Below, piece after piece: positions 21,724-58,864 of a DNA stretch of 64,000 bases (positions are counted from its first letter, which is position 1; every line of letters begins with the position of its first letter). The DNA lies in the NCBI GenBank assembly GCA_008330645.1, contig VLTN01000049.1, positions 217,290-281,289 of the forward strand, read 5' to 3'. The position numbers and the translations under genes were made by a program. The notes under the pieces were generated by a model, which searched no databases, was not told the DNA's origin, and worked only from the letters and a program-made list of their open reading frames with translations. The stretch is from Cafeteria roenbergensis (Eukaryota; Sar; Bigyra; Bicosoecida; Cafeteriaceae).

Positions 21724-24700
21724 CTAGGCAACGCGCTTGGGCACCAGCTTGAGGGCACCGTAGTGAAGCCGGATCAAGCCAAGCAAGTCCTCGCTGCAGA
21801 CAACTCCGCCTGTGGGATGCTTGAACCACCAGCAGCCATTTCGCCATGTCAGAGAGTGCTTGACAGCCTCGCCAGCACTCTTCTTGACGTGCAAAATGAC
21901 TACAGCGAACGTTGAAGGCTTGGGTGACAGCCGTAGCAACACGCCGCTTTTGTGGCCCTTCAGCAAATCCGCTGCCTGCGCCTGGCTGACGAAGCCGTGG
22001 GCCGGACGGACGATGGCGCCCTCCGGCGAGTGCATGGTCATCGGGTTGGCCTTCTGGTGCGCCCAGAGGGTCCCAAGATGCTGAATCGTGATTGCCAGTG
22101 CCCTGCAGGCTGTGCACCAGAGTTCGACGGTGCTGGGATGGGCCAGCCCGACTGCGCGAAGAGGGCGAGGGTCTCGCTCGCGGCGAGTCGCGTCGGGACT
22201 CGGGAAGACCACAACAGCTGGAAGATCGCGGCACGTGGGGTGGATGGGGTTGGAGTTGTCTGCACCCAGCGGGAGTTTCCACATGAGCTCAAGGTCGCTC
22301 TGGCTGAGGCCGTGGCCGCTGCCGCGCGGGTGCACCAACGAGGCGACGTGCTCGGCAACCAGCTCCCGCAAGATGCGAGGCGTCCAGACCACCCAGCCCT
22401 GCGTCGACAGGCGTGTCCCCGCTGCAACGCCATCCGACCCGGCTCCAAAGTAGACAAGAGCGCTCCTGTCGCAGTACTGGGCCACAGTGGTCAAAGGGGC
22501 GCAGCGTCCCAGCACGCCCAGGACTTCCTTCACAAAATCCGGGTCAGGGGTGATTCCGCGAAGGCGGGGCTCCATCAGCACCAGCGAGCTTACGTCTTTG
22601 CGGGAGGCTGCTTCTGGCAGGCGCGTGTACTCGGCGGAGGCGGGAGCAGCGCCCGCAGCGTGAGCTGCTCCTGTGGCTGCGCCTTGGGCTGCGCCGTGAG
22701 CTGCAACTGCGGCCGAGCCAGTTGCTGCGGCTGGCGAAAGGGAACCGCCCACGACAACGGACTGGAATTCGGCGAGGGGCCAACCTGGCGAGCTCGATAC
22801 CGCCGCAGCAGCCGCAACCCGCATGGGCTGCTCCGATGCAGCAGACCCGCCGGCGGTGTTGTACATCACCTTGACCGAGGCTGCTCTGCTTCCCGAGCGC
22901 GCGCGCTCATGCAGCGCAGCTGCCGGCAAGCTGCCATCGTTGACGTATCGCACGGCTTGCCTTGCGCCCTCAGCCTGTCCTGCCGCGTCGGACCACAACC
23001 GTTCGCCAACCCCCTCCAAGGTGGCAAGCTCTGCCTCAATGGAGGCAGCCTGGCGTGAGAGTGGAAGAGTTGGAGAGAGGCGGTCCGCGATGATGCGGGC
23101 AAAGAGCGGCCGTCCACGCGCCGCTTGCAAAACAGGGACACGCGCAAGCGCGGCTTCCAGCCGTCTTCGCTTCGACGCGTCGATGGCCCGCCCACAGTAG
23201 GCGCCTTCCGCCTCTGGCAGGTCAATGATGTCCGAAAGTCGACCGCTGTGCCGCTCGGACACGAGCGACACAACGATGCTGGCGCAGTAGTCGATGGAGA
23301 GGCCAGGAAGGACCAGCTCCGACACTGGAAGGGGGGTTGCGCCTTGTGTCACAGCTGGACTGCGGAACATGCTGGGCGGCACGAGGGACTCGAAGACGAA
23401 CTTGATGCTCCCCAGCCCAAGCGCATGGATGGCCGTCCGCATGTGGTCCACCAAGTCGGGGAGGGCGGCATGCGTGCCGCGAAAGCTGCGCTCGTCCGTC
23501 TCGACACAAACCAGCGTCTTGCCGCCAGGGCTGCTCGGCCTGCTGCCGGGCCGGATGAGCACCTCAGGACTTCCCACTGGCCCACCTTCCGCGCAGGCCG
23601 CCTCAACAGTTGCTGTGCTGCCCATGGGAACCAAGCCTAGCAAGCGCAGCAGCAGCGTGCTTCCGCCACTGGCAACCGCAATCGCGGCGCTTGCTCGAAC
23701 CACGACTACCCGGCCGAAGCCGTTGCCGCCGGCTCGAAAGGCCACTTCCCTGGCAAGCTGGTTCAGGAACATCGTCTTCCCAGTGCCAACCCCTGGGCCT
23801 GGCTTTGCCTTGGCGCCCACGATGGCGACGATGTTGAAGTCGGCGTCGTCCACAACCTTGCCGTAGAGTCCACTGGTCGGGCCCATCAGCGCCGTAGTGT
23901 GGAACCTGAAGCTTGCCGAAGACGCCGCGTCGAGCCGTGGAAGTGGCCCCTTCGGTACACGGCAAGGGTCCGACCGGGCATGCGAGCGGCTGACCAACGT
24001 CAGGTCGTCGGGGTTGCAGCCCGGCCCGGACTCGAGCTGCACTACTGATTCGGGAGAAACATCACGCATCTGCCCCGACCCACTTGCGTGCAGGCGCCTG
24101 ATCTCAGCTGCAGCCCACTCCGCTATAGCACGAAAACAGTCGCTGAACCGGCGGCCGGGCGTCAGGAGCAACCTATAGATCCTGACCGTGAGCTTCACCG
24201 CAAACGTGTCAACAACGGCCGTAGACTCGTCGATGCAAATGACATGCTTGACTGCGGTGAGCGAACAAATCATAGAGTGCCGCGCGACCGTCACTCGAAG
24301 GCGTGCGGCGCGGTAGGCCCGACGCCGGCAATGCGAGCGAGCGTGACAAATGCCCCCATTCTCACCGCCCGCGCCGATGAACACCTTGGCTAGCGCCTTG
24401 GAGTGACAGCAGTTGAGTACGCAGACTTCTGGCAACGTGCCGAGCTCGTGCTTCTGCTGTGCCAGCGCCAAAGAAAGCTGCTCGCTGGACAGGGGTATCC
24501 CGACGCCCCTGTCGTCCTCTAGAATCAACTGAATCGCCGCGTCCGTTGCACCCCGAATGCAATGCCCCGCGATGTGGAGGACTTGACAGCGGTCCAAAGG
24601 CGGCCGGGCCAAAAATTCTGGCTTGCCGGGCAAAAGCAATGCGTTCGCCACGCCACTCTCGCCCACCGCCTGCCAGATGGCCAAGGCCTCGTCCGCTACC

Positions 24701-24843
24701 GCCAGCGCGTCCAAGCGGGTAATGCCGCTCCCCTCCAAGCGCACGTGCCTTGGGGACGAGAATAAGGCAACAACCCCAACCAAAGGTGCGCCTGCACCAA
24801 CGCTTGCCCCCTTGGGGTCTGCACCGGCCGCTGCCGCGGCCAT
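21724..24843 (-). CDS. CHAT protease-like / P-loop NTPase / STAT-type SH2 protein
   Basis: About 1001 residues after removing an in-frame 114-nt intron (24365-24252). The start is the ATG at 24843. Order: (1) a caspase-like CHAT domain, residues about 20-230, with the dyad in place, His94 in HIAGHC and Cys146 in VLNCCHS, then VKHVICIDESTAVVD after the splice; (2) a P-loop NTPase about residues 295-560 (VAIVGAKAKPGPG, then VGTGKTMFLNQLA), where the first Gly of GxxxxGKT would be Pro; (3) a region with a winged-helix look (GWVVWTPRILRELVAEHV, HGLSQSDLELMW); (4) a C-terminal linker plus SH2 of STAT type: ELWCTACRALAITIQHLGTL, GFVSQAQAADLL, VLLRLS with the phosphotyrosine-binding Arg, KHSLTW, and LIRLHYGALKLVP. 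Inferred: a STAND-like sensor whose protease domain is controlled by nucleotide and phosphotyrosine. Biological role not shown. Confidence 0.8.
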   Translation of the reverse strand: MAAAAAGADPKGASVGAGAPLVGVVALFSSPRHVRLEGSGITRLDALAVADEALAIWQAVGESGVANALLLPGKPEFLARPPLDRCQVLHIAGHCIRGATDAAIQLILEDDRGVGIPLSSEQLSLALAQQKHELGTLPEVCVLNCCHSKALAKVFIGAGGENGGICHARSHCRRRAYRAARLRVTVARHSMICSLTAVKHVICIDESTAVVDTFAVKLTVRIYRLLLTPGRRFSDCFRAIAEWAAAEIRRLHASGSGQMRDVSPESVVQLESGPGCNPDDLTLVSRSHARSDPCRVPKGPLPRLDAASSASFRFHTTALMGPTSGLYGKVVDDADFNIVAIVGAKAKPGPGVGTGKTMFLNQLAREVAFRAGGNGFGRVVVVRASAAIAVASGGSTLLLRLLGLVPMGSTATVEAACAEGGPVGSPEVLIRPGSRPSSPGGKTLVCVETDERSFRGTHAALPDLVDHMRTAIHALGLGSIKFVFESLVPPSMFRSPAVTQGATPLPVSELVLPGLSIDYCASIVVSLVSERHSGRLSDIIDLPEAEGAYCGRAIDASKRRRLEAALARVPVLQAARGRPLFARIIADRLSPTLPLSRQAASIEAELATLEGVGERLWSDAAGQAEGARQAVRYVNDGSLPAAALHERARSGSRAASVKVMYNTAGGSAASEQPMRVAAAAAVSSSPGWPLAEFQSVVVGGSLSPAAATGSAAVAAHGAAQGAATGAAHAAGAAPASAEYTRLPEAASRKDVSSLVLMEPRLRGITPDPDFVKEVLGVLGRCAPLTTVAQYCDRSALVYFGAGSDGVAAGTRLSTQGWVVWTPRILRELVAEHVASLVHPRGSGHGLSQSDLELMWKLPLGADNSNPIHPTCRDLPAVVVFPSPDATRRERDPRPLRAVGLAHPSTVELWCTACRALAITIQHLGTLWAHQKANPMTMHSPEGAIVRPAHGFVSQAQAADLLKGHKSGVLLRLSPKPSTFAVVILHVKKSAGEAVKHSLTWRNGCWWFKHPTGGVVCSEDLLGLIRLHYGALKLVPKRVA
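24252..24365 (-). other. In-frame 114-nt intron within the CHAT domain
   Basis: Begins GTGAGA and ends ACCGCAG on the minus strand, phase 1, no stop inside. Removing it joins IGAG directly to VKHVICIDE, the expected CHAT sequence after the catalytic Cys; retaining it adds 38 basic residues unlike the family. Splicing could therefore switch the domain without breaking the frame. Confidence 0.75.
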
Positions 24844-25295: not shown

Positions 25296-28200
25296 TCACG
25301 GTGGGCTGATCACCCAAGCGAGGGGATCCGCGAGCCCTTGCGCTGTCCGCCACGGCGCGAAGTCCTCGGCCGTTCCTGGCGCCATCGGCTCATACAGAAA
25401 GTCCACAAGCAGCTTGATGTTCGAGCCGTAGCGCGGGGAGAAGGCATTCCCCGACTGCCCGGGGCCGACTGCGATGCGGCTCTCGCTGGGTGGCCTGCCC
25501 AGGTCAACCAGCGCTCGATAGGTCGGCCCGTGGACGAAGGGCATGGTTTCGTCTTCGTCGTAGCGCATCTGTCCCTTGGAGACGGTGTGGATCGAGCCTG
25601 ACCCGCTGGCTCGCTGCCCGGCAAGGCAGGACAGGAGGGACCCCGCCAGCAGCTGGTGAGCAAACACGCACTGATGAAGTCTGGATCCGCCTTGCCGGTC
25701 GCCCCAGGCAGGGAACCCGTCGTCGGAGCCTCCGTGGAGTCTACGAAGCGTTGACTCTGCGTTGGACATCGCCTTTGCGAGAAGATCCTCGCACGACGAA
25801 GCGCCCTGTGTCGCGCATGCTGCGTCTGAGCCGAACGAGCTCGGCGACGCATCCCCTTGCTCGCCGGCCGGGCCAAAGACGCGCGAAACCAGGTAGAATG
25901 GGCTGTAGAATGCAGTCTTGTCGCCCGGCACGGCGCCGCGCAGCAAGAGTGCCAGCTCCCGGACGAACCCAAACGCGGCGCTGGCGCCTTGAGAGCCGAT
26001 GGCCGCTTCCCCGTCCCAGCCCGCCAGAGTTGTCCGAAGCCGCCGAGCCCCGGCATCGAGCTTTGCGTCCGCCACGGCCAGCGCGGCCCGAACCGCGCGC
26101 TCCGCAAACGCGGAGCGAACGTTCTGCTGGATGGCAGCGGCCTCGGCCAGCGAAAGCTTGCCGTCGCCAGACGAGAAGGAGGCGTTGATCAGCTGAACGA
26201 TGCGCTCGGCTCGCCATCCGTCGGTTCCCCAGTCGTTGCCTTGGTATGCGCCACTGAAGCCTTCGTGAGGCACGAGCTTGTTGTTGGCTGTGGCGACGAA
26301 GCCCTCCGGCGGGTTGAAGGTCCGTGGCATGTCTGTGAAGGGAACAAACCGAACCCAGTCCGCGGTTCCGTTCCCCGGCGTTGGGTATCGCCCGTCCTGG
26401 CCAGCGGCACGCTGCGGGGTCAAACAGGGAGCTGTGAAGCCGATGTCCCCCGTGGCGAAGGCTGTGACAAACGACTGGCATGGCGCGGTGTAGTTTGCGA
26501 GGAGCGCTTGCACATGCCGCCAGGAGCTTGTTTGTCGCGGGTTTCCGAGCCCGAGCAGCGCTGGGAGCACGCCCTCGACCGCGCCAGCTTGCAGGGGCGA
26601 CCAGCCAAGGGCCAGCGGCTTGGAGAACCCGTTCTCCTTGTACAGGCGCTCGTCGGAGTTGAAGTAGGCCAGCCCGCCGTTCTCGTTGATCACTGGGCCG
26701 TACACCGAGGCGCGGGTCGTAATGACCACCGGGGATGCTCCGGCGATGCGGATGGTTTCCTGGCGCTCTGTGAACGCAAGAACGCTCCCGTTGTGCCGAT
26801 ACCCGGTGCGCCCTCCGGCGCCTGCGAGGGCAACCTCTTCCAGCACGAAGATGTCCTGTGCATCGTTCTGCGACGTCGTGACTCCCCATGCCAGCGCTGG
26901 CGTGCGGCCCAGAACGATGCCAGGAGCCCCTGCGAAGGAAGCCCCGACGGCGTTGTATCCGGAGTCCTTTGCTGTGAGCGACAGCGCCTGCCACACGCCG
27001 GGGCTTGCCATGGCCAGATGCGGGTCGTTTTCCAAAATGGCCCCTCCTGATTCCGTGAAATTACCGTGCACCACGAAGTTGTTTGACGCCAGCACCTGCT
27101 CGGGGGACAAGATTGCGGCTTCCAGCGAGCGACGGAGCGACGCCGTCGGGTTCACGTTGGCCGTCCAGGCAGCGCCTGCCCAGAGCGCCGATGAGACAGA
27201 GGCCCAGCCCGCCAAAGCCAGCGAGGCGAGGCTGGTCGAGGCAGCTGCCACCATCGGCTCATGGTCTCCAGCCAGCTGCCGGCTGCTGGACGTGGCGCGG
27301 CCGGAAGCAATTGCCTGTTGCACAGCGGCAGTGTACTCGGAAGCGTTCGACCGGTGTTGCCCTGTGAGGTCTCCAAAAGTTCCGAGCTGCTGGGACAGCG
27401 TCGAGAGCACCGTTGGGTAGTTCCTGGAGTCATACTCGGGGAAGAGCTGCTCAACTCGCTCCGGGGTCAGCCCATCAAGCTCCACCAGGGCCATACGCTG
27501 GAGCTCCATTCGCGCGTTTCCCGAGAGCTGCAGGCCGACAAGCAGCGCCAGGGCCAGGGTGTCGCTGCGCTCGAACGGCCTCACGGGCTTCCCCCCGAAC
27601 AGCCAGTGCTCGAGCGTAGGTGGCGGGGCCGTCGCCAGGTGTGCGTTGATCCCAGCTACGTAGGCGGAACACAATGACGCAGTGTGGGGGTCCTGGGTCG
27701 CGGTGAGGCGCTCCAGGGCGTGGTTGAACCCGAGCGTGCGGAACAGCTTGTCGAAGTCCAAGGTTGCCTCTCCGACGAGCTCAGAGAGCTGGCCTTTGAC
27801 AAGCCTTCGGTTGAAATCCATTTGCCAAAGCCGGGTCTGTGCCTGCACGAGCCCTTGCGCAAATGCCATGTCGACCTCCGAGTCCGCGTCGATCCGAATC
27901 AAGCCATGCCCAGCGCGCTCCCGGCTAATAACGACCGTACCCTCGAGACCTTGCACAGCCGAGGTTCCAACAGGGAACTCGGCCACGGCTGCGGCCGAAA
28001 GGACACGGATGAGGCCAAAGCCGGCCCATGCGACGACCACTCCAACGATGGTCGCTGCTGAGCACAGCCCCACCGGGAGGCATCGCCGACCACAGCCCGA
28101 GCCACGGCGAGAAAGGCAAAACGGGAAGCCACAGCAAAAGGCGCGACTGGTGGCCGAAGCGGCCGGGGAGCCAGCGGGTGCGCCTGAGTGCAGGTCTGTT

Positions 28201-28427
28201 GCCGCAGACTCGCCTGCTGCGCGCCCGGGGGACGTGGCAGTCCTGGGGCTGCCACAAGAACGAACCGACCCCTCCTTTGAGCACAGCTGCACGGTTCCGA
28301 GCACCGTGACTGGCAGCCCCGCAAACACGGCCAGCCCAGCGAGCGCCGCGACGAGCGCAACGAACCAGCAGTCTTCCAGCGCGTGGCCAGAGGTGTGCGC
28401 CACCTGGGCAAACGCTGCGAGCAGCAA
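25296..28427 (-). CDS. Penicillin-acylase family Ntn hydrolase, membrane-anchored (5' end uncertain)
   Basis: Peptidase S45 family: amidases cleaving N-acyl bonds (penicillins, acyl-homoserine lactones, N-acyl amino acids), made as a precursor that cuts itself so a Ser becomes the new N-terminus. Open frame of 1043 codons. Alpha-chain-like part: GTVVISRERAGHGLIRIDAD, AFAQGLVQAQTRLWQMDFNR and GQLSELVGEA. The nucleophile block is SNNFVVHG, Ser near codon 448 (27086-27084), preceded by a hydrophobic spacer. Beta-chain marks: GGAILENDPHLAMASPGVWQ, FAGAPGIVLGRTPALAWGVT, NNKLVPHEGF, WDGEA. A membrane span (IVGVVVAWAGFGLI) precedes the catalytic part. The open frame begins at TTG and has no in-frame ATG before the catalytic domain, so an upstream exon supplying the start is likely. 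Confidence 0.8.
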   Translation of the reverse strand: MLLAAFAQVAHTSGHALEDCWFVALVAALAGLAVFAGLPVTVLGTVQLCSKEGSVRSCGSPRTATSPGRAAGESAATDLHSGAPAGSPAASATSRAFCCGFPFCLSRRGSGCGRRCLPVGLCSAATIVGVVVAWAGFGLIRVLSAAAVAEFPVGTSAVQGLEGTVVISRERAGHGLIRIDADSEVDMAFAQGLVQAQTRLWQMDFNRRLVKGQLSELVGEATLDFDKLFRTLGFNHALERLTATQDPHTASLCSAYVAGINAHLATAPPPTLEHWLFGGKPVRPFERSDTLALALLVGLQLSGNARMELQRMALVELDGLTPERVEQLFPEYDSRNYPTVLSTLSQQLGTFGDLTGQHRSNASEYTAAVQQAIASGRATSSSRQLAGDHEPMVAAASTSLASLALAGWASVSSALWAGAAWTANVNPTASLRRSLEAAILSPEQVLASNNFVVHGNFTESGGAILENDPHLAMASPGVWQALSLTAKDSGYNAVGASFAGAPGIVLGRTPALAWGVTTSQNDAQDIFVLEEVALAGAGGRTGYRHNGSVLAFTERQETIRIAGASPVVITTRASVYGPVINENGGLAYFNSDERLYKENGFSKPLALGWSPLQAGAVEGVLPALLGLGNPRQTSSWRHVQALLANYTAPCQSFVTAFATGDIGFTAPCLTPQRAAGQDGRYPTPGNGTADWVRFVPFTDMPRTFNPPEGFVATANNKLVPHEGFSGAYQGNDWGTDGWRAERIVQLINASFSSGDGKLSLAEAAAIQQNVRSAFAERAVRAALAVADAKLDAGARRLRTTLAGWDGEAAIGSQGASAAFGFVRELALLLRGAVPGDKTAFYSPFYLVSRVFGPAGEQGDASPSSFGSDAACATQGASSCEDLLAKAMSNAESTLRRLHGGSDDGFPAWGDRQGGSRLHQCVFAHQLLAGSLLSCLAGQRASGSGSIHTVSKGQMRYDEDETMPFVHGPTYRALVDLGRPPSESRIAVGPGQSGNAFSPRYGSNIKLLVDFLYEPMAPGTAEDFAPWRTAQGLADPLAWVISPP

Positions 28428-34825: not shown

Positions 34826-35040
34826 GTGAGTCAGTCAGCACATACGAGATTGCGGTGTCCTGCCTCCACTCTGACGGACATCTTCAGCTCTATCGGCCAA
34901 AGCAGAGGCAAGCCATTGCTGAGATTCCATGGGCGCCCCGCTGGCGCCCCCTTGCGTCGCACGACTATGCTGCCACGTACAACAGCTGGCCAGTGACAGC
35001 CAAGCCGGACGGGTCGCACCAGCTAACATCCCACCCGCAG

Positions 35041-38000
35041 CGGCTGCGTCCTGCTTCTCCAACGTGCTGACTCTCAACCATCCGACGTGGGAGACGGACA
35101 CGCCAAAGCGTCAGACCATGTCAGTTCGCTTGATGCCGCGAAGAGGCTCTACTCTTGCAGCTGGGGGGCCCGCTTGGCGGATTCAGGACTCTCAGAACTA
35201 TGCGTACGCCTCGCTGAGCCTGGCCACGCCGCAGGCCCAAGTGGTGTGGGCGGTTGTCAATGGACAGCAGCGCAAGGTGGGCACGTTTGCCTGCGACCTT
35301 GCGTCGGTGGCGGCTGCGGAGCAGCAGCAGCTCGCGAAGATTCAGGTCACGACCTGGTCGAGCGGGCTGCACCAGGTGTTCTGCGGGCAGGCTGCCGTCA
35401 GCAGTGGCAAACCGACTGCAGAGTTCGAGGACAGCTCCTTGCAGCTCGGCAACGGCGTGGGCCTGTGGGCGTCGGAGCACGGCGGGAACGTGGACTTTGA
35501 CGACTTCTCGCTGGAGGACAGCTGCCCGTCTGACACGAGTTGCGGCAACTTGATGGCGGGGCAGACGTGCGCGTTTTCGTGCTCGTCCGGGTTTAGGCTC
35601 GTGCCCGGCACCGACAGCTTGCGGCAGTGCTCGACTGCCGGGAACTGGCAGGGCTCCGAGCTGGAGTGCGCTGCGTCCCCGCCCACGTTCGAAGCGGAGC
35701 AGCCGCCGTTCATTCGCGAGGTGCCTGAACGGTCTGCGCCTGGCTCGCCGATCGGCAAGGCCTTTGAAGCGAGCACGGGTGCGTCGCGAACGGCGGCGCT
35801 GTGGCGCATCGTGTCTGGCAACGGCCCCGACGACGACTGGTTTGTCATCGGCCGGTTCGACGGCCAGCTGAGAGTGAACCGGGTGGAGCTGAAGTTTGCG
35901 CAGCAGAATGAGTATGTGCTGAGGGTGGGCGTCTCCCCGGACGGGGACCTCAATGCTGAGGTGATCGCCGACGCCATCATTCGCGTGACAGACGTCAACG
36001 ACCCACCCGTGTGGGCGAGTGACGCCCCGGAGTTGGAGATGCCCGAGGACACCGGTGTAGGTTCGCTTGCTGGCGCGTCGCTGCTGTCGCTGGTCAGCGA
36101 TGCTGATGGAGACACCTCCACATTTGTTATCGTATCGGGCGACTCGAAAGGGCAGTTCGAGATCGATGCCGCAACGTCCCGGATTCGCGTCCGCAAATTG
36201 CTGGACTACGAGACGAGCGCATTTGCGCAGCTGCGCATCAGGGCGACAGACGAGCGCGACGAGGCGCTCTTCGCGGATGCGATTGTTCGGATCGCGGTTA
36301 AGGACGCGAACGAGCCGCCCCGGTTCGTCCAGACCAGCGGCGAGATTTCGGAGCTCGCGGAGGGCAGGGACCTGAGTTCGGTCAACAGTTCAGAACTCGT
36401 GCTGCGGACTCAGCCCTTGGCCACGGACGACGACGCGGGGCAGCACCTGAGCTACTCCCTGTTTGACGCGGACGGCTTCCAGTCCAACGTCTTTGCCGTC
36501 GGTGCAGACGAGTCTGGAGCGCTGCGGCTGACCGTGCGGCCCGAACATGCCGCCCTGCTGGACTTCGAGGCCACGCCGACGCTGCGGCTGAAGATCAGGG
36601 CTTCAGACGACGCCGACCCGCCGCTGCATGCCGACGCATCCGTGGTGGTGCGCGTGACGGACCTCAACGAGGCGCCCGTGGTGTCCTGGCCGATAGCACC
36701 GCTGCCTGTGCCCGAAAACGCCGCGGTGGGCACCGTGGTGCACACGTTCCAGGCGAGCGACCCAGACGCAGGGCAGCAGCTGTCCTGGTCGGTCGGAAGG
36801 CAGAGCGTTGCCGGAGCCTTTCGTGTCGTCTCGGGGGCGGTTGAGGTGGCGTCTGCGTCATCGTTGGACTTTGAGGGTGGCCTTTCCATGCCGCTCTGGG
36901 TGGAGGTCACGGTGGCAGACAACGGCGTGCCGCGAATCAGCGCGACTCGCAACGTGACGGTCGTGCTGGCGGACGTGAACGAGGCTCCCTCCGTGATTGC
37001 CGGGCAGAGCTTCAAAATCAGCGAGGACAGCCCGGTTGGCGCCATTGTGGGGACCATTGCGGTGTCGGACCCCGATGCCGGCGATGCGGGCAACCACACG
37101 CTTCTCGTGACGGGGGACCAGTCCACGTTCACCGACGTGGCAGGGAGTCTGCAGCTGGTCGTGGGGGAGCTCGGCGCCCTCGACTTTGAGACCAAGCCTT
37201 CCCATCGCGTGGACGTGAAGGTGATCGACAATGGAGGGCTTTGGGGGACTGGCTCTGTGGTCGTGTCGGTCACGGACGCGAACGAGCCGCCAGTGTTCGC
37301 CTGGGCAAGCGTGGCGGCTTCGCTGGGGCAGGACTCGGAGGCAGGCACGGAGGTGGTCCGGCTCCAGGTCAGCGACCCGGACGCCGGCGATGCCGTCTCG
37401 GTGTCCATCCAGTCGGGCGACGGCGACGGCGACTTTGCCGTCGATTCGAAGGGCACGCTGACAGTCAAGCATGTCGGCGGCGGAATGACGGCCGGACTGC
37501 GCCGGCTGAGAGTGCAGGCCGCGGACAAGGCGGGGCTGTCGTCCAGCTGCACGGTGCAGGTGACGGTCGTCGAGCAGAACGACCCGCCCACGGCAAGCGA
37601 CGCTGTCCGGTCCGTGCCTGAGAACGCCGCGGTGGGGACGCTCGTGGGGAATCCCATTTCTGCGACCGACGACAACGGCGATGCCGTCCGGTTCAGCTTC
37701 GATGTGGAGCAGCCGGCCTTTGCCATCGACTCCGTGACGGGCCAGATCAAGGTGGCGTCCAGCAAAGCCCTCGACTTTGAAGCCACTCCCTCGCTATCGC
37801 TCCGCGTGCGAGTCACGGACGACGCGCCGCAGCCGCTGTCCGTGACCATCACGGTCGTGGTGTCGCTTGTCGGCGTGAACGAGGCGCCCTCGCTGACCTC
37901 GGGTCAGCGCGCCTGAGTGTGAGCGAGCACGCGGCAGCAGGCACCGTGCTGGGCACCATCGCCGCCTCGGACCCCGACGCCAGCGACAAGCTGCGCTTTG

Positions 38001-40650: not shown

Positions 40651-43600
40651 GTGCGCGACGTGAACGAGGCCCCGACGTTCGGATTCGTGAGCCGCCGCGT
40701 GGAAGTTAGCGAGGGCGCCTCGCCAGGCGCGTCGGTGCTCTCGGGGGCCTCGCTTGGGGCCAGTGACCCCGAAACACCGGACGCCTCCGACCTCAAGTTC
40801 GCCATCTTGAGCGGCAACCAGCAGGGCCTCTGGTCGATGGACGCGGTCGGGGGCGACATTCGCTTCGCGCAGTCCAACCCCCGCGCCCTGGACTTTGAGA
40901 GCGCCCCGCGCCAGTCCACGCTGGTTGTGTCCGTGACGGACAACGGTGCACCGGACGGCCTGAAGCGCAGCGGTACGGCGACGTTGCAGATGATCGTTCT
41001 GGACGTGAACGAGCCGCCGGCTGTCGTGCTGCCGGTCGCAGGCCTCGAGGTCCGCGAAAACTCCGCTCCAGGCGCTTCGGCCGGGAGCGTGAGCTGCGCT
41101 GACGTGGACGCCAGCGACCAGAGCGGGCTGGCGCTGGCGCTGGTGGCGCAGGAGGCCATTCCGGGGACCAGCGGAGTGCTGCCCTTCGTGATCGATGCCG
41201 GCACTGGAGTGCTTCGCGTGAGCCCGGGCGCTGGTGGGGCGCTGCTGGATGCTGAGAGCAAGGCCACGTACGAACTCCAGCTCCAGTGCACGGACAATTT
41301 GGGGTTGGTATCAGAGACCAAGTCGGCAAGCGTCCGCATCGTGGACGTGAACGAGGCACCAGTTTGTGCTGGGCCCTTGAGCTTCTCCGCTGCGAAGGGT
41401 GTCAAAGCCATGGTGGGCACTCCGCTCGGGGCCGTGTGCTCCGATCCAGACTCTGGGGACACGCTCGTGTTCGCGATCCACCCGTCAAGCCAGGCAGCAG
41501 CTCCCGCCTTTGCGGTGGACGCAACCTCTGGGCAGCTGCGAGTGCACGACGTCTCGGGCACAGGCGCCGGCTCGGTCAACGATGCGAGCGCGCGCTTTGC
41601 GCTGAATGTGACGGTTGCGGACAAGCAGGGGCTTGCAACCGTGGTCCATGTGCTCGTGCAAATGACGGACACCAATGACCCCCCCGTGTTCGGCGCGTCC
41701 GTCCCAAGAATGCTGTCGGTGCCGGAGAGCTCCACTGACGGCTTCATCGTGGCACTGCTACAGGCCACGGACGAGGACTTCGCGTCTGACCAGTCTCATC
41801 GCTTGACGTACTCGCTTGCGCCAACGGGCCGCTCGGTCAACAGGCCCTTTCCCTTTGCGGTCACAACCACGCAGGGATCGTCGGCCCTGGGAGCTGGTCA
41901 GATTGTACTCAGGCTGCAGGGCTCCGGGCTGGCTGGCCTTGACTTTGAGGGGGCGCAGAGCGAGTTCGATGCAATCGTGACGGCGACGGACAACGGCACG
42001 CCGCAGCTGTCGGCCAGCGTTGTCGTGACCATTCGGGTGGCGGATGCTGCGGAACCGCCCACGTTTGACGCCCTGGTGGCCGAAAGCAGTCCGGATGTGG
42101 ACGCTGCGACCGGCCTCCCTGTGATTCGCGCTTTCGTGCCCGAGGGCCTCAGGAAAGGTGCAATCGCCTTCTCCGTGACGGCCACGGACCCGGATGCGGC
42201 CTCGCAGGGGCACCTCGAGTGGGCCATTGCGGCGCCTACCAGCCTATTCAGCGAGCACTTCACGCTCGACCCAGCTTCGGGGGCAGTTGCGGCGGCGTCA
42301 GATATCGATTTCGAGGCCATCGCGCCTCGGGCAGGCGTGGGCCTGGCGAGCGGACACGCGCTGTCGGTCACAGTCACGGTGGGCGACGTCAACGAGGCCG
42401 CCAGCATGAGGACGAGCGCGGTGCTCCGCGTCTCCGTCACAGACGTGAACGAGCCGCCGGTGGTGGCGGCAAGCACGGCGCTGGAGGTGGCCGAGGACGC
42501 CACGAGCGGGGCAGTCGTCGGCACCGTTCCTGCCACGGACCCCGACTCCGGTTCCAGGGGCCAGCTGAGGTTCCGGATCAACGGCTCCGCCGCTGGCGAT
42601 GGAGCGTCTTTCCGCATCGACCAGCTGTCGGGCGCCGTCTCGATCGCCTCGGCGGGCCTGGACTGGGAGGACCGGCCTGAGTACCGTTTCCAGGTGCTGA
42701 TCCAGGACGGCGACAGCGTGGAACCGCTGCAGGTGGCCACAATGGTCACCATCAGCGTCAGCAATGTGAACGACGTCCAAGTGACAGCCCTTCGCCTGGA
42801 CCCGACGGAGAACCCGTGCACCAGCAGCCCCTGCGCAGAGGGATCGCTGGCGGACATGGTGCCGCGGCCCAGTTTGGCGTCGCTGTCGTCAACAGGAATC
42901 TTCTTTTCGCCTCTGGGGGGCGCGGCAGTCCAGCTTGTGGGGACTGGCATCGGGTTCACCGCTTCGCGCTTGGAGCGCGAGGGCTTGACGATGGCGGACG
43001 TCAAGGTGGCCGTGACGTACGGCCCCACGGCCACAGAGTACGTGGCACAGGACTGCCGAGTGGTCGCTGCCGGGTCAGTGGTGCAGTGTCGGACCGTGGC
43101 GGCATGGGGTGGCAGTCACAAGTGGCGGCTGGAGGTCACGCAGGTGGGCTCAACGCCGCTGAACCATGCCTGCGAGGCCCCACTGACGACCTCGGCAATG
43201 CCCCCTGAGATCACAAGCGTGACCGTCTCGGAGCACTCCGGCCAGCTGCCGGCTGGCCAGCTGCCTACGTACGGCGGTGCCAGCTTCACCGTCGAGGGCT
43301 CGGGCTTTGGGCCCAAGGCTAGCGTCATCAGCCTATTGCTCGGAGGTGCGGACGGGCGGCGGTTCGTGGCAGAGAGCTGCGCAGTGACGGATGGCACACA
43401 GCAGCGAGCCATGTGCGCCACAGCGCCAGCTGGACACGGTCGCAACCTCGGCTTCACGGTCGTCGCGTCGGGCCTCCCGAGCGCGGTGTTCCAGTCAGCT
43501 GTGTCCTACGCGCCTCCCGTCATCACATCAGTGGCGGTGAAGGACCAAGTGACGTCGTCGGCTTCGCAATCGACGCTCCGCACCCGCGGCGGCCAGGTGC

Positions 43601-46600
43601 TGGTTGTTTCGGGCAGCCAACTGTCGGACGGGGCCTTCCCAGAGGAGCTTGAGCTGCGCTATGGCGACGGCAGTGGCGGCTCCCGCCGGTTTCAGGCGAC
43701 GCAGTGCCGCGTCACAAAGCCCCACACGGAGATGCAGTGCATGAGCGTGGCAGGAGTCGGCTTTGGGCTCGGCGTCCAGGTGCAAGTGGGCGGACAGTGG
43801 TCGGAGCCGTCAGCAGCGACGCTGGCCTACGCTTCGCCGATCGTCTCGTCGGTGAGCGGAGCGGGGGCGCTGGCATCCGTGACGGCGGGCGGTGAGACCC
43901 TCAGCGTCGTGGGCGACAACTTCGGGCCGGCTGACACCAGCCTCGCCTCAGTGGTGGTTCGCTACGGCCCCGCCGCCAACCCTGGCAAGTACACGGCTCA
44001 CAGCTGCCGGTACGGCGCCGCCAACACGGAGATCGTGTGTCTTACCGCCCCCGGAACCGGCCGTGCCCATGCCCTGTCCGTGACGGTGGCCTCGCAGACC
44101 TCGGCCCTGCTGGCAGGCGCGGTGAGCTACGAGCCGCCTGTTGTGGCCTTCTACGAGGGCGCGGGCTCCCTCGGTGCGGCCACCGATGGGATGCAGGAGG
44201 TGCTTGTGACGGGCCGCAACTTTGGCCCGCTCGGCCACGGCGCAATCGACGTGGTGGTGTACCGCCAGCCGTCCGGCGCGGCGGAAGGCCTCACTCCAAC
44301 GGACCTGACGACACTGGCTTCGACGAGCAGCCAGTGGAGCAACTGGACGGACGTGCCCTCGCTGGACACGGAGCAGTTCGTGTTCCGGGCTGCCTCCTGC
44401 CGAGTGTCTGTTGCGCACGTACAGTTGTCGTGCTTGACTGCGGAGGGAGCGGGCCGTGGCATGCAGTGGGCGACTGTGGTCGACGGACAGGCATCCACCG
44501 TGCCCTCGACGTCGTATGGCGCGCCGAGGCTGGTCTCAATCTCCGGCCTGGGCACAGACGGGGCGACGACTGATGGCGGCGAAGAAGTGGCGCTGCGCGG
44601 AGCCAACTTCGGGCCTTCTTTTGAGCTATTGGACGGGGGGGCAGCGGGCTTCCTGTCGTCCGTGACGTATGGGCCCTCGCGGCGGGAGTACGTGGCACAG
44701 GGCTGCAGGCTGGCGTCGCACTCCGAGATCCGCTGCCGGACGAGCGCGGGCGTTGGGCGCGGCCACCGCTGGCGGGTGGTGGTGGGCGGCCAGGAGACGG
44801 CGGACTACCGCGATACGGTCGAGGCCAGGGCCGCCGGGCTGGTGCTCGACTACGCAAGTCCAGTGCTGTCGTCCGTTTCGCCACTGACGGGGACCACAGA
44901 GGGCGGTTTCACCCTCCACCTGTCGGGCACGAACCTTGGCCTCTCCGATGCCCGCCGCGCCAGCTCGGGAGAGGCGGTGATGACTGTGCTGTTCGGTGAC
45001 CTCCAGGTGCCAGTTGTGGCGCAGTCGACCGACGGCCAGGGGCGGCATTCTGCGGACGTGTACGTTCCCGAGTCCGACGGCGGAGCTCGCGACGTTCAGG
45101 TGCGCTTGATCGACCCTGCTGGCCGGGAGACGCTGTCCAACGCGCTGGTCTTTGCCTTTGGGCCGCCCACGCTGAGCCAGGACTTGAACGTGGTGCAGGC
45201 GCTAGACGGCAAGTTCAACGTCACGGCCACAGGGACCAACTTTGGCCTTGCGCCGCGCATTCTGGCGAACGGCATCCCGACTGAGAATTGTGCGGTGATT
45301 GTTCCCCACAGGCAGGTGACGTGTCAATTCGTCGGCGGGTCGGGGGACTTCAGCATCATCACGAGGTCAGGCTTCGTGTCAAACAGCGTGTTCTTCGACT
45401 TCATCAGCCCCTCCTTCCTGGTGGGCGACGCGTCGAGCCGGCCGCTTCTGGATACCCAGGGAGGGACGGTGATTCGAGTGGAGGGGCTGAACTGGCAGAC
45501 AGACCCGTCCCGCATCAACGTGACGGTGGGCGGGGCCCCGTGCCCGATCATGCCCCTTGAAAGCCCAGTCATTGTGCTCGAAGACGAGACTGTGAGCCGG
45601 TTCAGCCTGGAATGCCGGGCGCCGCCAGGGCAGGGCCAGGGCGTCCCTGTCGTGATCACTCGCGGGGGCCAGGCCTCGCTCCCGGACTTCGCGTGGTCGT
45701 ACGCGCCGCCAAGCCTCGCCTCTGTGGACCCTGCAGCGTCGCTCCCGACCACCGGTGGCCGCATCACCATCCGCGGGTCCAACTTTGGGATATCCGGCGT
45801 GGTGCTGCTGCCAGGCATCTCGGTGCAGGTGGAGTCGTGGTCGCACGACACCATCGTAGCGCTGGTGGATGCCGGTGAGGGGGCCGCGCTGAGCCTCGAG
45901 GTGGACGTGGCCCAGCAGCGCAGCGCGCCCCTTCCCTTCAGCTTCGCCCCTCCCCTGATCACGCAGGCGCCGGCAACGGGCCCAACGGTGGGCCAAGCTG
46001 GGGCGCTGATCGTCGGCGCGAACTTCGGCGTGTCGATGCCGACCGTGTCACTCGTCCGGGACCTACCCGGCGCCGACGGGGCGCTGCAGTCGCTGCGGTG
46101 TCCAGTCGTGAGCTTCGACCACTCCCAGCTTGTCGTGAACCTGCCAGAGGGCACGGGGACAGGGTGGCGCCTCGTGGTGACGGCAGCCGGGCAGGAGCCC
46201 GTGGCTCCGCCCCCGTTCGACTTCGACCGGCCGGAGCTGGTGCGGATCGACCACGACCCGCTCATGGGGCTGCCCACCTCTGGTGGGGTGGAGATCACGG
46301 CCCTGGGCGCCAACCTGGGCCCGAGCGGCGCCGTCCTGTTTTTGCGCGCATTCGGGGACTCGAACCCGCTCAGCGGCTACCAGGCCACTTGGCTGCGACA
46401 GACGCACGCCAACGCCACCTTCGCCTTGCCGGAAGGCCAGGGCAGCACTCTCGAGGCAGTGTTGACCGTGGACGGGCAGCACTCGGACCCGCTGCCGTTC
46501 GCCTTCGACGCGCCTCGGATCGACTCGCTCCTTCTCCCAGACCAGGTTCCCACGGAAGGCACGTGGCGCTCGCGGGACCCGATTCGTCGCGACGTGGTCA

Positions 46601-49600
46601 CGATCATGGGCTCGTCCTTCGGCGTGCAGTCCACGCAGCGGACGGAGGTGCGAATCCTCCCGGCAGCAGCGAACGTCTCGGCCCCCTTCGCTGCCATCTC
46701 GCCGGACGACTTCCGCAAGGGCGTGGCCTGCACGCTCTCGGTGGAGCCCGACCCGCTCGCGCTGGGCCAGTACAAGGAGACTGAGTCGGGCGTGCGAAAC
46801 TACGGCCACGGCATGATCCGCGCTGGCATCCCGGAGGGCTACGGGCGCGACCTGCGGCTGGTGGTGTCCGTGGGCGGCCGCCTCTCCAACGCAGTGCTCT
46901 TCTCGTACGACCCCCCGATGGTGGCTGCTGTGCTGCCCAACGTCCCTACCGCCGCGACGTGTCCACAGACCAACGCGGCGCTCGGCACCTGCGCGGTCGC
47001 GCGTCCGCAGGGGCAGAGCATCCGCCTGACGGGCCGCAACTTTGGCGAAACGCCTCCTCTGGACGGCGAGCTGGGCATCCGCATCGGCGGCCTCCCGTGC
47101 TCGGTGCAGTCGTGGAACCGCGACGCCACGCTGGGCGGACGGCCGTACCTGACCTGCTCCATCCCCTGGGACACAGTGGGCGTCAAGAACCTCACCGTCG
47201 AAGTGGCGCTGCAGGAAATCGAGCCGTGGACCGCCGCAGAGGGCCTGCTGGCCACCGAGTGCGCGGCCGGGGCCTACGGCGTCGAGGGCGAGCACTGCCT
47301 GGAGTGCCCGGCAGGGGCGTCGTGCGAGGGAGGGTCGGCCGACCCGGTCTCGCTGCCCGGCTGGTTCGATGTGCGCCCCGGGCTGGGCGCAAACGGCACG
47401 GACAAGGTTGACGACGCTCTCTGCCCCGCGCAGCGGCGGGTGCTGTCGGCGCGCGACTTCTGCTTCCGCCCCATGCCGTGCGAGCCCAAGGAGGCCTGCA
47501 TCGGCGCCTCGCTTTGCGCCACGGGGTATTCGGGCGAGCGCTGCTCCCAGTGCGAGCCCGGCCGGTTTTACCGCATCAACGGCCTGTGCGAGCGCTGCCC
47601 CGACAGCCCCGGGCTCATCGTCGCCCTGTTCGTGGTGGTCGCGCTGGCGGCCTGCGTTGCCGGGTACGTGCTCAACCAGAAGAGCGTCAATGTCGGGTTG
47701 CTGGCCGTGGGCGTGGACTACTTCCAGGTGCTGGCCATCTTCGCCCGCACCCGGGTGCGCTGGCCGGCCTTCGTTCGGGACCTGTTCCGCTGGCTGTCGG
47801 CCTTCAACCTCAACCTGGAGCTCGCGGCCCCCGAGTGCGTGCTGCCCGAGATGACCTTCGCCCTCAAGTGGTTCATGACCATGCTCCTGCCGCTTGCGGC
47901 CGTCATCGTGCTGGGCCTGACCTTCGGAGCGCAGGTGCTGTACAAGCGCGTCGTCATGGGCCGGCGCGACTGGCGCGAGCTCACGTCCCACCTGGACCCG
48001 TTGGTGGCCGTCATGGTCGTGGTGGGCGTGTTCCTCTACCTGGTGCTCTCCCGCATGACGCTGGACGTGTTCAACTGCGCCCCCACGGACCCGCCGGACG
48101 GAGACAACCTGTACATGAGCGGCATGCTCGACGTCGTCTGCTTCCAGTCCGAGACGCACCTGCTGCTCTTCCCGTTTGCCGTCACGGCTGCGGTCCTGTA
48201 CGTGGCCGGTTTCCCTGCCTTTGTGTTCATGTTCGTGCGTCGCAACCTGTACAAGGTCAAGTACGACCAGATCCTGCGCGCCCGCGGCATCTCGCCGAGC
48301 TCCAAGCTGATGCCGCCCCAGATCAAGGCGTTCCGCGCTCGCTGGCATCGGCTCTACTACCTGTACCGCCCCGGCAAGGCCTACTGGCTGGTGGTCATCC
48401 TGGCGCGCAAGTTCCTCGTCGCCTTCACTGCGCTGGCGTTCCGGTCGACGCCCACGTACCAGCTTGCGGCCTCAATCGTCGTGCTCTTCGCCGCCTTCAC
48501 GCTCCAGGTGCGCCACTCGCCGTACATGTCGCTCAGCGACCACGACGCCGTGGCGAGCCAGTTCCGGGACTTCACCGACCCGGCCAACATCAAGGCGGAG
48601 GGGACGCTGCAGCTCGCGATCCGCTCCAACATGGACGACTTCGAGCAGTCGTTTGAAGCCGAGGGGAAGCGCGGCGCGGCGGGCAAGTGGCGCGCGGCCG
48701 CGTCCGAGATCGGCAAGGCCAGTTCGGCGCTCAAGGCCAGAGCGACCACCGCCATTGCGGAGCAGCTCGTCAACTACAACGCCGTGGAGATCGGGCTGCT
48801 GGGCTGCGGGATTCTGGTCAACCTCGCGGGCATCATGTTCTTGTCGGAGCGGTTCGCCGACTCGTACAACGGCTACTACCAGGCGGAGTACGACACGCTC
48901 GCAGTGGTCGTCGGCCTGGTGATCTTCTCGTCGCTGGTGTTCTTCGTCGGCACCCTGGCAGTTGAGGTGATGCATGTGGCAGCCCCTGCCACCGCAGCCC
49001 GCGTGTTTGGCGTCTGCGTCAGCACCAAGCGGCTGGACAAACGACTCGCCCGCGCGGGAAGCAAGCGCGACCCGATGGGCAGTGCTGGGACCGCATCCAT
49101 GGCTCCGCTGCAGCAGGAAGGGAGCCGCGAACCCAGCAGAGGTGGAACGTTCGAAATGGTCAACAACCCCGCTTCGAGCATAGAGGCGCTGCGTGTTGGC
49201 GGCTTGCTGGGCGTCAGGCTACCTACCAGAGCTCCCGACCAAGCAATGTGGGTTCGCATCAGGAAAGTCTACCAACACAATGAACAGCAGCTAAAGGACC
49301 TTCAGAGAGCTCTTGTGAAGCTCGAAGCAGACTCAAAGCGGTCGACAGGCGCTGTAAGCCTCTCACCGAACCCCCTCTCCCCGGAACATGCACAGGCCAG
49401 TCGCACGCGGAGCAGCTCTCCGGGAGCAGAAGCAGCCCTTCAAAAGCCAAGAGGTGCGACGAAGCATCGAGCTCGCACAGGATTTCGTTCGATGCAGCTC
49501 GGGCCCCGACAAGTGCCGAGGAGCAGACCGCATCCCATTCCGGCTGGAGCCCTGTCTCCTTTGATCCCACCAAGCCTTGAGCTGGAAACATCACCATCTA

Positions 49601-58132: not shown

Positions 58133-58864
58133 TCACCGCATACGCTCCACCTGCTGCCGCAGGTACTGCGTCTGCCCGATCAGCTGGGTCGCCAGTCCCT
58201 TGGCGATGACCTCGTTCAGCCTCGACAGCCAGCGGAAGGCCCAGCGCGCACGCTCCCTCGGCCGGTCGCCGAAGGCCGTGTCCGCCACCTTCTTGAGGAA
58301 GGCGAAGGCCGCCGGTCCCATGCGTCCCGTGGTCGTGATGACGAAGGGCACAATGGAGCTCAAGTTGTCCTTTGTAGCTGAGCTCTTCTTGTACTCCCTC
58401 ATCTTGTCATTCTCACGGCGCTCGAGAAAGGCGTCCATGTTCTGCAGGCCCTGCGTCACGTAGGACTTGCTCACCGCCGAGGTGATCTGCACGTCGACGA
58501 GACAGGTGGTCTCGAAGTCGACGTGCACCCGCAGGTCCGGTCGCTTGCGCGCGGCCTCGCTGGACCCCGGCTGGGATCCGAAGCGCGTCTGCCCGTCCTG
58601 CCAGCTGGAGGGCTCCACCACCGACTGTAGCCCCGCCGAGCGCACCGCCGCGTGCAGGACGTCGCGAACGTCGTTGTGCGCCCGGATGGTGGAGCCCTTG
58701 CCGCAGCGGCAGCGCGCCAGGTGATGTGCCACGCCCGAGACCCCGCCGATGTGGACGGTGCCTCTCGCGGTGGTATCTCGCTGCACGCACGCGCAGTTGA
58801 TCGACACGCCGTCTGGCACCACGTGGTCAGCCTCGGAGGCTCCGATGCGGTAGCGGGTGACCAC
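58133..58864 (-). pseudogene. Copy D, endonuclease-module part (downstream of frameshift)
   Basis: 243 codons continuing the retroelement protein after the frame break: zinc-type module (INCACVQRDTT, HHLARCRCG), AHNDVRDVL, RPDLRVHVDFETTCLVDVQI, and the VERMR end. In copies B and C the same region is in frame with the preceding part; here a deletion of one C and one G (GAGCCGCGGGTCCC versus GAGCCCGCGGGGTCCC) separates them. Confidence 0.85.

What the first reader, a model, noticed from the sequence alone, without database searches (positions are those of the whole stretch)
21724..24843. A single protein joining a CHAT protease-like domain, a P-loop NTPase and a STAT-type SH2 domain
Seen: His94 and Cys146 in CHAT-typical contexts, a P-loop region, and a C-terminal linker-SH2 with GFVSQAQAADLL, the buried Arg in VLLRLS, and KHSLTW. 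Known: CHAT domains are caspase-like executioners in bacterial and fungal/algal NLR-type proteins; SH2 domains of STAT type read phosphotyrosine. I know of no described protein with both. Inference: an intracellular sensor where nucleotide state and tyrosine phosphorylation gate proteolysis, perhaps regulated cell death.
Basis: partly seen in the sequence, partly recalled or inferred. Interest (0 to 1): 0.92.

Follow-up and report, generated by a model that had tools for sequence, protein, structure and literature searches.

The report
Protease–switch–SH2 receptor in a protist
A single-celled marine flagellate appears to encode a protein that joins a caspase-like protease, a nucleotide-binding switch and an SH2 domain, and its genome holds three more proteins that end in an SH2-like domain behind a switch-like middle, which hints that phosphate-reading signalling is wired straight into immune-type or cell-death receptors.

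Summary
The frame 21724-24843(-) is real: 1039 codons, 1001 aa once an in-frame 114-nt GT-AG intron (24252-24365) is removed. Spliced, the N-terminus scores 33.8 bits against Pfam CHAT (cut-off 24); His94 and Cys146 align with other CHATs of the genome. The last 100 residues fold, from sequence alone, in SH2 order (best of five models pLDDT 64, the other four 42-47), and the 50 PDB rows listed, of 686, are SH2 proteins. Pfam does not score this SH2. Whether it is STAT-type is unsettled. The middle has a P-loop core, but strict Walker A is not met and Pfam support is weak. New: three further proteins of the same genome end in SH2 or SH2-like domains: a second CHAT protein, a TIR–NACHT-type protein, and a homolog of the latter. 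Only one of the four SH2s passes Pfam's cut-off. Assembly size points to Cafeteria burkhardae strain BVI, a heterotrophic flagellate and giant-virus host, not an alga. Best mechanism: NLR-like switch, CHAT effector, SH2 as input module. Phosphotyrosine input is unproven: no canonical tyrosine-kinase loop was found. The paper listings I saw show no STAND/NLR or CHAT protein with SH2. New variant of a known kind.

The parts
21724..24843 (-). Gene for the CHAT–P-loop–SH2 protein: ATG at 24843, stop TAG at 21724-21726; 1039 codons, 1001 aa if spliced
   Evidence: open frame with in-frame stop just upstream; only match of the full protein in its genome at E<=0.001
24367..24780 (-). CHAT domain, exon 1 part (aa 22-159); His94 at 24562-24564, Cys146 at 24406-24408
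   Evidence: Pfam CHAT 33.8 bits on the spliced N-terminus; His and Cys aligned with other CHATs of the genome
24252..24365 (-). Predicted in-frame 114-nt GT-AG intron
   Evidence: CHAT rises from 17.9 bits (exon 1 alone) to 33.8 (spliced); no transcript seen
24118..24251 (-). CHAT domain, exon 2 part (VKHVICIDESTAVVDTF...)
23254..23838 (-). P-loop region with core GPGVGTGKT; STAND/NB-ARC-like motif order read by eye
   Evidence: core in 17 of 5000 shuffles, strict Walker A not met; Pfam AAA_25 E 0.43, below cut-off
22906..23151 (-). Region with a weak EAD2 match; may be the helical part of the switch (inference)
   Evidence: Pfam EAD2 15.3-15.4 bits, cut-off 23.8
22624..22818 (-). Ala/Gly-rich low-complexity linker
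   Evidence: translation
22129..22623 (-). Unassigned region, winged-helix-like by eye
   Evidence: Pfam 0 families for 22084-22620
22054..22128 (-). Stretch before the SH2 that resembles the STAT linker by eye
   Evidence: alignment with recalled and PDB STAT letters
21736..22017 (-). SH2 domain (ORF aa 943-1036); ArgbetaB5 R971 at 21931-21933, HisbetaD4 H996 at 21856-21858
   Evidence: SH2 profile, AF2 model, Foldseek, residue positions

Best explanation
It is an NLR-like (STAND-type) receptor: an N-terminal CHAT cysteine protease as effector, a P-loop switch in the middle, and a C-terminal SH2 domain as input module in place of the usual repeats. Most likely mechanism: at rest the switch is closed and the protease idle; docking of the SH2 on a phosphorylated (probably phosphotyrosine) partner that appears during infection or stress opens or clusters the switch, brings CHAT domains together and starts proteolysis, leading to a defence response or cell death. 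Shown here: the frame, the CHAT match with its His and Cys, the P-loop core, the SH2 fold by prediction, and SH2 or SH2-like domains last in three more proteins of the genome. Inferred: the splice, nucleotide switching, phosphate reading, clustering, protease activity, immune role.
For: CHAT over the curated cut-off once spliced, catalytic residues aligned. SH2 by profile, model and fold search, with the phosphate-binding Arg and betaD His aligned. Recurrence: L011 (contig 19) CHAT 26.6 bits, over cut-off, NACHT E 0.098, SH2-like end E 0.039; L030 (contig 1) TIR_2 E 1.3e-4, AAA_16 7.1e-4, NACHT 8.9e-4, SH2 0.09 whole and 0.0022 on the segment, all below curated cut-offs; L010 (contig 36) SH2 23.6 bits, over cut-off 21, and BLASTP of L030 against L010 gives 8.8e-16 over the NTPase region and 2.9e-9 over the SH2. 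Effector–switch–sensor is the usual NLR layout (established knowledge). A fungal TPR-bearing CHAT protease activates a gasdermin, and some gasdermin-linked proteases are NLRs with an N-terminal protease (PMC12881547, passages). Protein-tyrosine-phosphatase family: 9 matches, 5 over cut-off.
Against: Only 1 of the 4 SH2s passes Pfam's cut-off and the target's own does not score. hhalign of target to SH2 is weak. A profile of L010+L030 alone does not find the target's SH2, and adding L010, L030 and L011 to the SH2 profile barely raises its score (9.9 to 10.2 bits). Four of five AF2 models are poor. Strict Walker A is not met and Pfam support for the NTPase is weak. Tyrosine-kinase loop pattern: 0 matches. 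No gasdermin match. No NCBIfam or PADLOC match. BLASTP between target and L011 finds only short weak matches (best CHAT piece E 0.66). No expression data, and no relative outside this genome was examined.
Confidence: 0.5

Rival explanations
1. The SH2 is an integrated bait: it mimics a host signalling SH2 that pathogens attack, and the receptor fires when the bait is bound or modified, as proposed for plant NLRs with integrated domains. No phosphotyrosine input is needed.
For: SH2 or SH2-like domains sit last in four proteins with different N-termini; no canonical tyrosine-kinase loop found; the likely host is attacked by a giant virus (PMC6972860; PMC10945749). Plant NLRs with integrated domains: abstracts in the listing and established knowledge.
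Against: The phosphate-binding Arg and betaD His are kept, which a bait need not keep; phosphatase-family matches exist.
Confidence: 0.2
2. The SH2 is an internal brake or dimerisation module: it docks on a phosphosite in the same protein or its twin, as in STATs and SHP2, so a kinase acting on the protein itself regulates it.
For: A four-STAT profile ranks the target first of 354 frames; stretch resembling the STAT linker by eye; SHP2 tops the PDB search with the three-protein alignment, a score probably driven by L010.
Against: No STAT among the 50 Foldseek rows listed of 686. A phosphorylatable tyrosine was not looked for.
Confidence: 0.15
3. A housekeeping protease with an SH2 targeting module, not an immune receptor; the P-loop is degenerate.
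For: Strict Walker A not met, NTPase profile support weak; neighbours are metabolic (penicillin amidase; glycosyl transferase family 3, anthranilate phosphoribosyltransferase as I recall the family); no close copy.
Against: CHAT and TIR-type proteins with NACHT or AAA_16 matches and an SH2-like end look like a receptor repertoire.
Confidence: 0.1
4. The C-terminus is not an SH2; the profile match and the single-sequence model are chance.
For: No Pfam hit; hhalign probability 2%; four of five models poor; longer fragment poor; no Foldseek match at E<=0.001.
Against: The 50 listed Foldseek rows are SH2 proteins; canonical element order; 0 of 1000 shuffles and rank 2 of 354 frames; other proteins of the genome with SH2 in the same place.
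Confidence: 0.05

Closest known systems
CHAT proteases linked to gasdermins in fungi, and NLRs with N-terminal proteases (PMC12881547, passages)
   Same: caspase-like CHAT protease in a sensor-type protein; some such sensors are NLRs with an N-terminal protease
   Different: sensors named there use WD40, ANK or TPR repeats; here an SH2. No gasdermin match in this genome.
NLRs / STAND NTPases of animals, plants and fungi (established knowledge)
   Same: effector – P-loop switch – C-terminal input layout; a TIR–NACHT-type protein with SH2 in the same genome
   Different: SH2 as the terminal module; the target's NTPase region does not score as NACHT or NB-ARC
Sponge (Amphimedon) TRADD-N proteins with variable C-termini that include SH2 (PMC8195603, section 10)
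   Same: an SH2 as one option for the variable C-terminus of apoptosis/immunity-type proteins
   Different: animal; Death-like plus TRADD-N at the N-terminus, no CHAT named with SH2 in the section read
STAT proteins (linker-SH2)
   Same: signature GFxS...A..LL...LLRxS, STAT-only profile ranks the target first of 354 frames, linker-like stretch by eye
   Different: no STAT among the 50 listed Foldseek rows; betaE/betaF in the model; CHAT and P-loop in place of the STAT body

Membership tests
CHAT protease (Pfam PF12770) | profile score over the curated cut-off | tested here: met
   33.8 bits vs 24 for the spliced N-terminus; 17.9 for exon 1 alone; none for the unspliced ORF
CHAT protease (Pfam PF12770) | catalytic His and Cys | tested here: met
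   H94 aligned in 4 of 6 sequences (two lack the region), C146 in 6 of 6; that these are the catalytic positions is recalled
CHAT protease (Pfam PF12770) | proteolytic activity | not testable with these tools
   needs an assay
SH2 domain | Pfam PF00017 over cut-off | tested here: not met
   0 families for the target C-terminus; L010 meets it, L030 and L011 fall below
SH2 domain | SH2 fold (betaA-alphaA-betaB-C-D-E-F-alphaB-betaG) | tested here: met
   best of five AF2 models, pLDDT 63.8; 50 of 50 listed Foldseek rows are SH2 proteins, best E 4.1e-3; by prediction, moderate confidence
SH2 domain | ArgbetaB5 and HisbetaD4 for phosphotyrosine | tested here: met
   R971 and H996 (ORF numbering) align with Src; the alignment also pairs both
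STAT-type SH2 | closer to STAT than to other SH2s | tested here: inconclusive
   STAT-only profile: first of 354 frames but 7.3 bits vs 9.8 with all SH2s; no STAT among 50 of 686 Foldseek rows
STAT-type SH2 | no betaE/betaF, split alphaB (recalled) | tested here: inconclusive
   model shows E65-69, E75-78 and one helix, against it, but confidence is low
STAT-type SH2 | STAT linker domain | tested here: inconclusive
   PF21354 rang nowhere, controls included; resemblance by eye
STAND/NLR NTPase | Walker A [AG]xxxxGK[ST] | tested here: not met
   first position is P; core GVGTGKT present
STAND/NLR NTPase | NB-ARC/NACHT profile match | tested here: not met
   target: AAA_25 E 0.43 only; in other proteins L011 NACHT 0.098, L030 NACHT 8.9e-4, both below cut-off
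STAND/NLR NTPase | nucleotide-dependent oligomerisation | not testable with these tools
   needs biochemistry

The most novel reading that the evidence does not exclude
This flagellate has a family of intracellular receptors in which an SH2 domain takes the place of the usual repeat sensor, so that a phosphorylation event directly switches on a caspase-like protease (CHAT members) or a TIR-type effector: a phosphotyrosine-gated inflammasome in a protist without recognisable canonical tyrosine kinases, possibly used against giant viruses.
Probability: 0.3. Interest if true: 0.92.

Novelty: new variant of a known kind. Interest (0 to 1): 0.76.

Why it matters
It would link two signalling worlds usually seen apart, phosphotyrosine reading and NLR-type switches, in a free-living protist; the defence systems of single-celled eukaryotes against viruses are called unknown in PMC10945749 (passage). 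If the host is Cafeteria burkhardae, it can be infected in culture with the giant virus CroV (same paper), so the idea is testable. It also bears on where SH2 domains were recruited outside animals and amoebae.

Tried and rejected
Rejected: EAD2 as a sure domain (15.4 bits, cut-off 23.8). Rejected by eye: extra SH2 candidates L018, L019, L024 and L035, whose matched frames look unrelated or non-coding. Rejected: L009/L013, an acyl-CoA oxidase, as an EAD2 protein. A gasdermin was sought and not found (of 14 control genomes one rang, none over cut-off). NCBIfam and PADLOC gave nothing. PDB sequence searches with the full ORF and with the CHAT part gave nothing. hhalign of the target to a five-sequence SH2 profile was weak. 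Searching the genome for SH2 is insensitive: PF00017 gave 1 candidate and 1 match, so four is a lower bound. Other CHAT loci: the genome search puts CHAT over cut-off in L003/L014, L004/L015, L005/L016, L006/L011 and L007/L012 (5 of 5), yet Pfam scans of the long L014 and L015 frames did not list CHAT; their alignment shows the motifs.

Literature: seven searches were aimed at this. Papers listed of papers found: 3 of 3, 0 of 0, 2 of 2, 15 of 240, 15 of 23, 12 of 46, 12 of 158. No title or abstract start in those listings describes CHAT with SH2 or a STAND/NLR with SH2; unlisted papers were not seen, and the library holds openly licensed PMC papers only. One search was for the organism, general SH2 papers, unspecific. 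PMC7916137 and PMC10907252 were listed and not opened. Seen: PMC6972860 outline and section 4 part 1 of 2; PMC8195603 passages and section 10; passages of PMC12881547, PMC4053784, PMC4758236, PMC2575513, PMC10945749; PMC12258605 term search without hits. Viral contigs, phage, plasmid and E. coli collections were not searched.

Full report
What is there. The minus-strand frame 21724-24843 is open for 1039 codons and begins TGA-GTG-ATG, so a stop lies just upstream in frame. The full protein matches only itself in its genome at E<=0.001. That genome has 36,303,456 bases in 167 contigs, close to the published assembly of Cafeteria roenbergensis strain BVI: 170 contigs, 36,327,047 bp, 70.1% GC; the four strains average 1.67-1.89 introns per gene (PMC6972860, section 4). 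PMC10945749 calls the same strains C. burkhardae. The match rests on size and contig number, so the identity is likely, not proven. That organism is a heterotrophic stramenopile without plastids, not an alga.

The intron. Between the CHAT halves lies a 114-nt GT-AG stretch, 24252-24365, whose removal keeps the frame. The unspliced ORF shows no CHAT at E<=10, exon 1 alone 17.9 bits, the spliced N-terminus 33.8 bits at E 3.1e-8 against a cut-off of 24.

CHAT. H94 in VLHIAGHC aligns with a His in the three other CHATs that cover the region (L014, L015, L016); C146 in LNCCHS aligns with a Cys in all five others. The genome search with the CHAT family gave 5 matches, 5 over cut-off; the target was not among them, probably because its intron splits the domain.

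The middle. GPGVGTGKT follows a hydrophobic stretch. G.G.GK[ST] appears in 17 of 5000 shuffles, G.GTGK[ST] in 0 of 5000, but the strict Walker A is not met. Pfam gives AAA_25 at E 0.43 and EAD2 at 0.022, both below cut-off. I read a STAND-type motif order by eye; that is inference.

The C-terminus. Pfam gives nothing for it. An SH2 profile made without any sequence of this genome, from five stretches printed by PDB searches and six recalled human ones, hits residues 949-1026 (i-E 5e-5 in the whole protein, 2.1e-6 for the C-terminal piece). None of 1000 shuffles reached it, and of 354 real frames from the window and loci the three best were L010, the target and L011. A profile of the four STATs alone ranks the target first of the 354 (7.3 bits, i-E 2.6e-4, 0 of 1000 shuffles). 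hhalign was weak: E 0.0089, probability 2%, 1 of 200 shuffles and 0 of 19 other segments as high. AlphaFold2 on residues 940-1039 alone gave a best model of pLDDT 63.8 and pTM 0.50 with elements E-H-E-E-E-E-E-H-E, the SH2 order; the other four models had 42-47. Foldseek against the PDB gave 686 matches at E<=10, none at E<=0.001; of the 50 listed, 32 name SH2 and 18 are proteins that I recall to hold one; best is STAP-1 (E 4.1e-3, probability 1.00, TM 0.58/0.59). A longer piece (881-1039) folded poorly, pLDDT 44, with nothing significant. R971 and H996 align with the phosphate-binding Arg and betaD His of Src. STAT-type is unsettled: the STAT profile and a linker-like stretch speak for it, the higher all-SH2 score, the absence of STATs from the 50 rows and the betaE/betaF strands of a low-confidence model against it.

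Not alone. Searching the same genome led to three more proteins. L011:939-5063(-), contig 19: CHAT 26.6 bits, over cut-off; NACHT E 0.098 and C-terminal SH2 E 0.039, below. L030:2243-5380(+), contig 1: TIR_2 E 1.3e-4, AAA_16 7.1e-4, NACHT 8.9e-4, SH2 0.09 (0.0022 on the segment), all below cut-off. L010:963-5165(+), contig 36: C-terminal SH2 23.6 bits, over cut-off; no TIR or NACHT by Pfam, but BLASTP of L030 against it gives 8.8e-16 over the NTPase region, 2.9e-9 over the SH2 and 3.9e-5 over an N-terminal stretch that overlaps L030's TIR match only in part. So four proteins put an SH2 or SH2-like domain last: two with CHAT first, one with TIR and NACHT matches, one its homolog. One of the four SH2s passes Pfam's cut-off. 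The target and L011 share layout rather than close sequence: BLASTP finds only short weak matches, while A1, an alignment of their ends with L010, shows 33% identity of L011 to the target. Other CHAT loci carry AAA_16, NACHT or LRR matches; the parts of their frames held in the 10-kb loci gave no SH2 match near these scores.

Can it read phosphotyrosine here? Phosphatase family PF00102 has 9 matches, 5 over cut-off. The DNA pattern for HRDLxAxN, a usual tyrosine-kinase catalytic loop (motif recalled; only some residues at x covered), has 0 matches. Introns or divergent loops could hide kinases, and a tyrosine-kinase-like enzyme of Dictyostelium phosphorylates such tyrosines (PMC4758236, passage). 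A writer is not shown.

Mechanism. Best guess: SH2 docking on a phosphorylated partner opens or clusters the switch, and the CHAT protease acts. Shown: the layout. Inferred: splicing, switching, reading, activation, role. In print, a TPR-bearing CHAT protease activates a fungal gasdermin and a small subset of such sensors are NLRs with an N-terminal protease (PMC12881547, passages), and sponge TRADD-N proteins carry SH2 among variable C-terminal modules (PMC8195603, section 10). No gasdermin was found with PF04598. CroV infection of strain BVI is reported as delayed and occasionally abortive (PMC10945749, passage); that paper is about virophages and nothing ties this to the present gene.

Novelty. 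Seven aimed searches of the paper library listed no CHAT-SH2 or STAND-SH2 protein by title or abstract start; four of them listed only part of what they found, and the library is limited to openly licensed papers. I rate it a new variant of a known kind.

Noticed in passing
L030:2243-5380 (+), contig 1: Protein with TIR_2, NACHT/AAA_16 and C-terminal SH2 matches, all below Pfam cut-offs; homolog of L010.
   Followed up: partly
L011:939-5063 (-), contig 19: Second CHAT protein with a NACHT-like middle and an SH2-like end, with long low-complexity inserts.
   Followed up: partly
L010:963-5165 (+), contig 36: 1401-aa frame with the one SH2 that passes Pfam's cut-off, at its C-terminus, and a region homologous to L030's NTPase.
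   Followed up: partly
L014, L015, L016: Very long frames (2375, 6890 and 3244 aa) with CHAT matches in the genome search and AAA_16, LRR or NACHT matches by Pfam; CHAT itself was listed by Pfam only for L016.
   Followed up: partly
L012:2346-5030 (-): CHAT domain over cut-off followed by a weak Kelch match (E 0.022).
   Followed up: no
window 25296-28427 (-): Penicillin amidase family protein (E 1.7e-144) with hydrophobic stretches before it by eye; a mostly bacterial family as I recall, so perhaps a transferred gene.
   Followed up: no
window 34929-37916 (+) and 40651-49653 (+): Cadherin-domain proteins in what is probably a unicellular flagellate, the second also with IPT/TIG domains in a 3000-aa frame.
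   Followed up: no
window 58827-63905 (-): Long frame with a reverse transcriptase domain, probably a retroelement.
   Followed up: no
genome G000: No match to the DNA pattern for the tyrosine-kinase loop HRDLxAxN although SH2 and PTP-family matches exist.
   Followed up: partly
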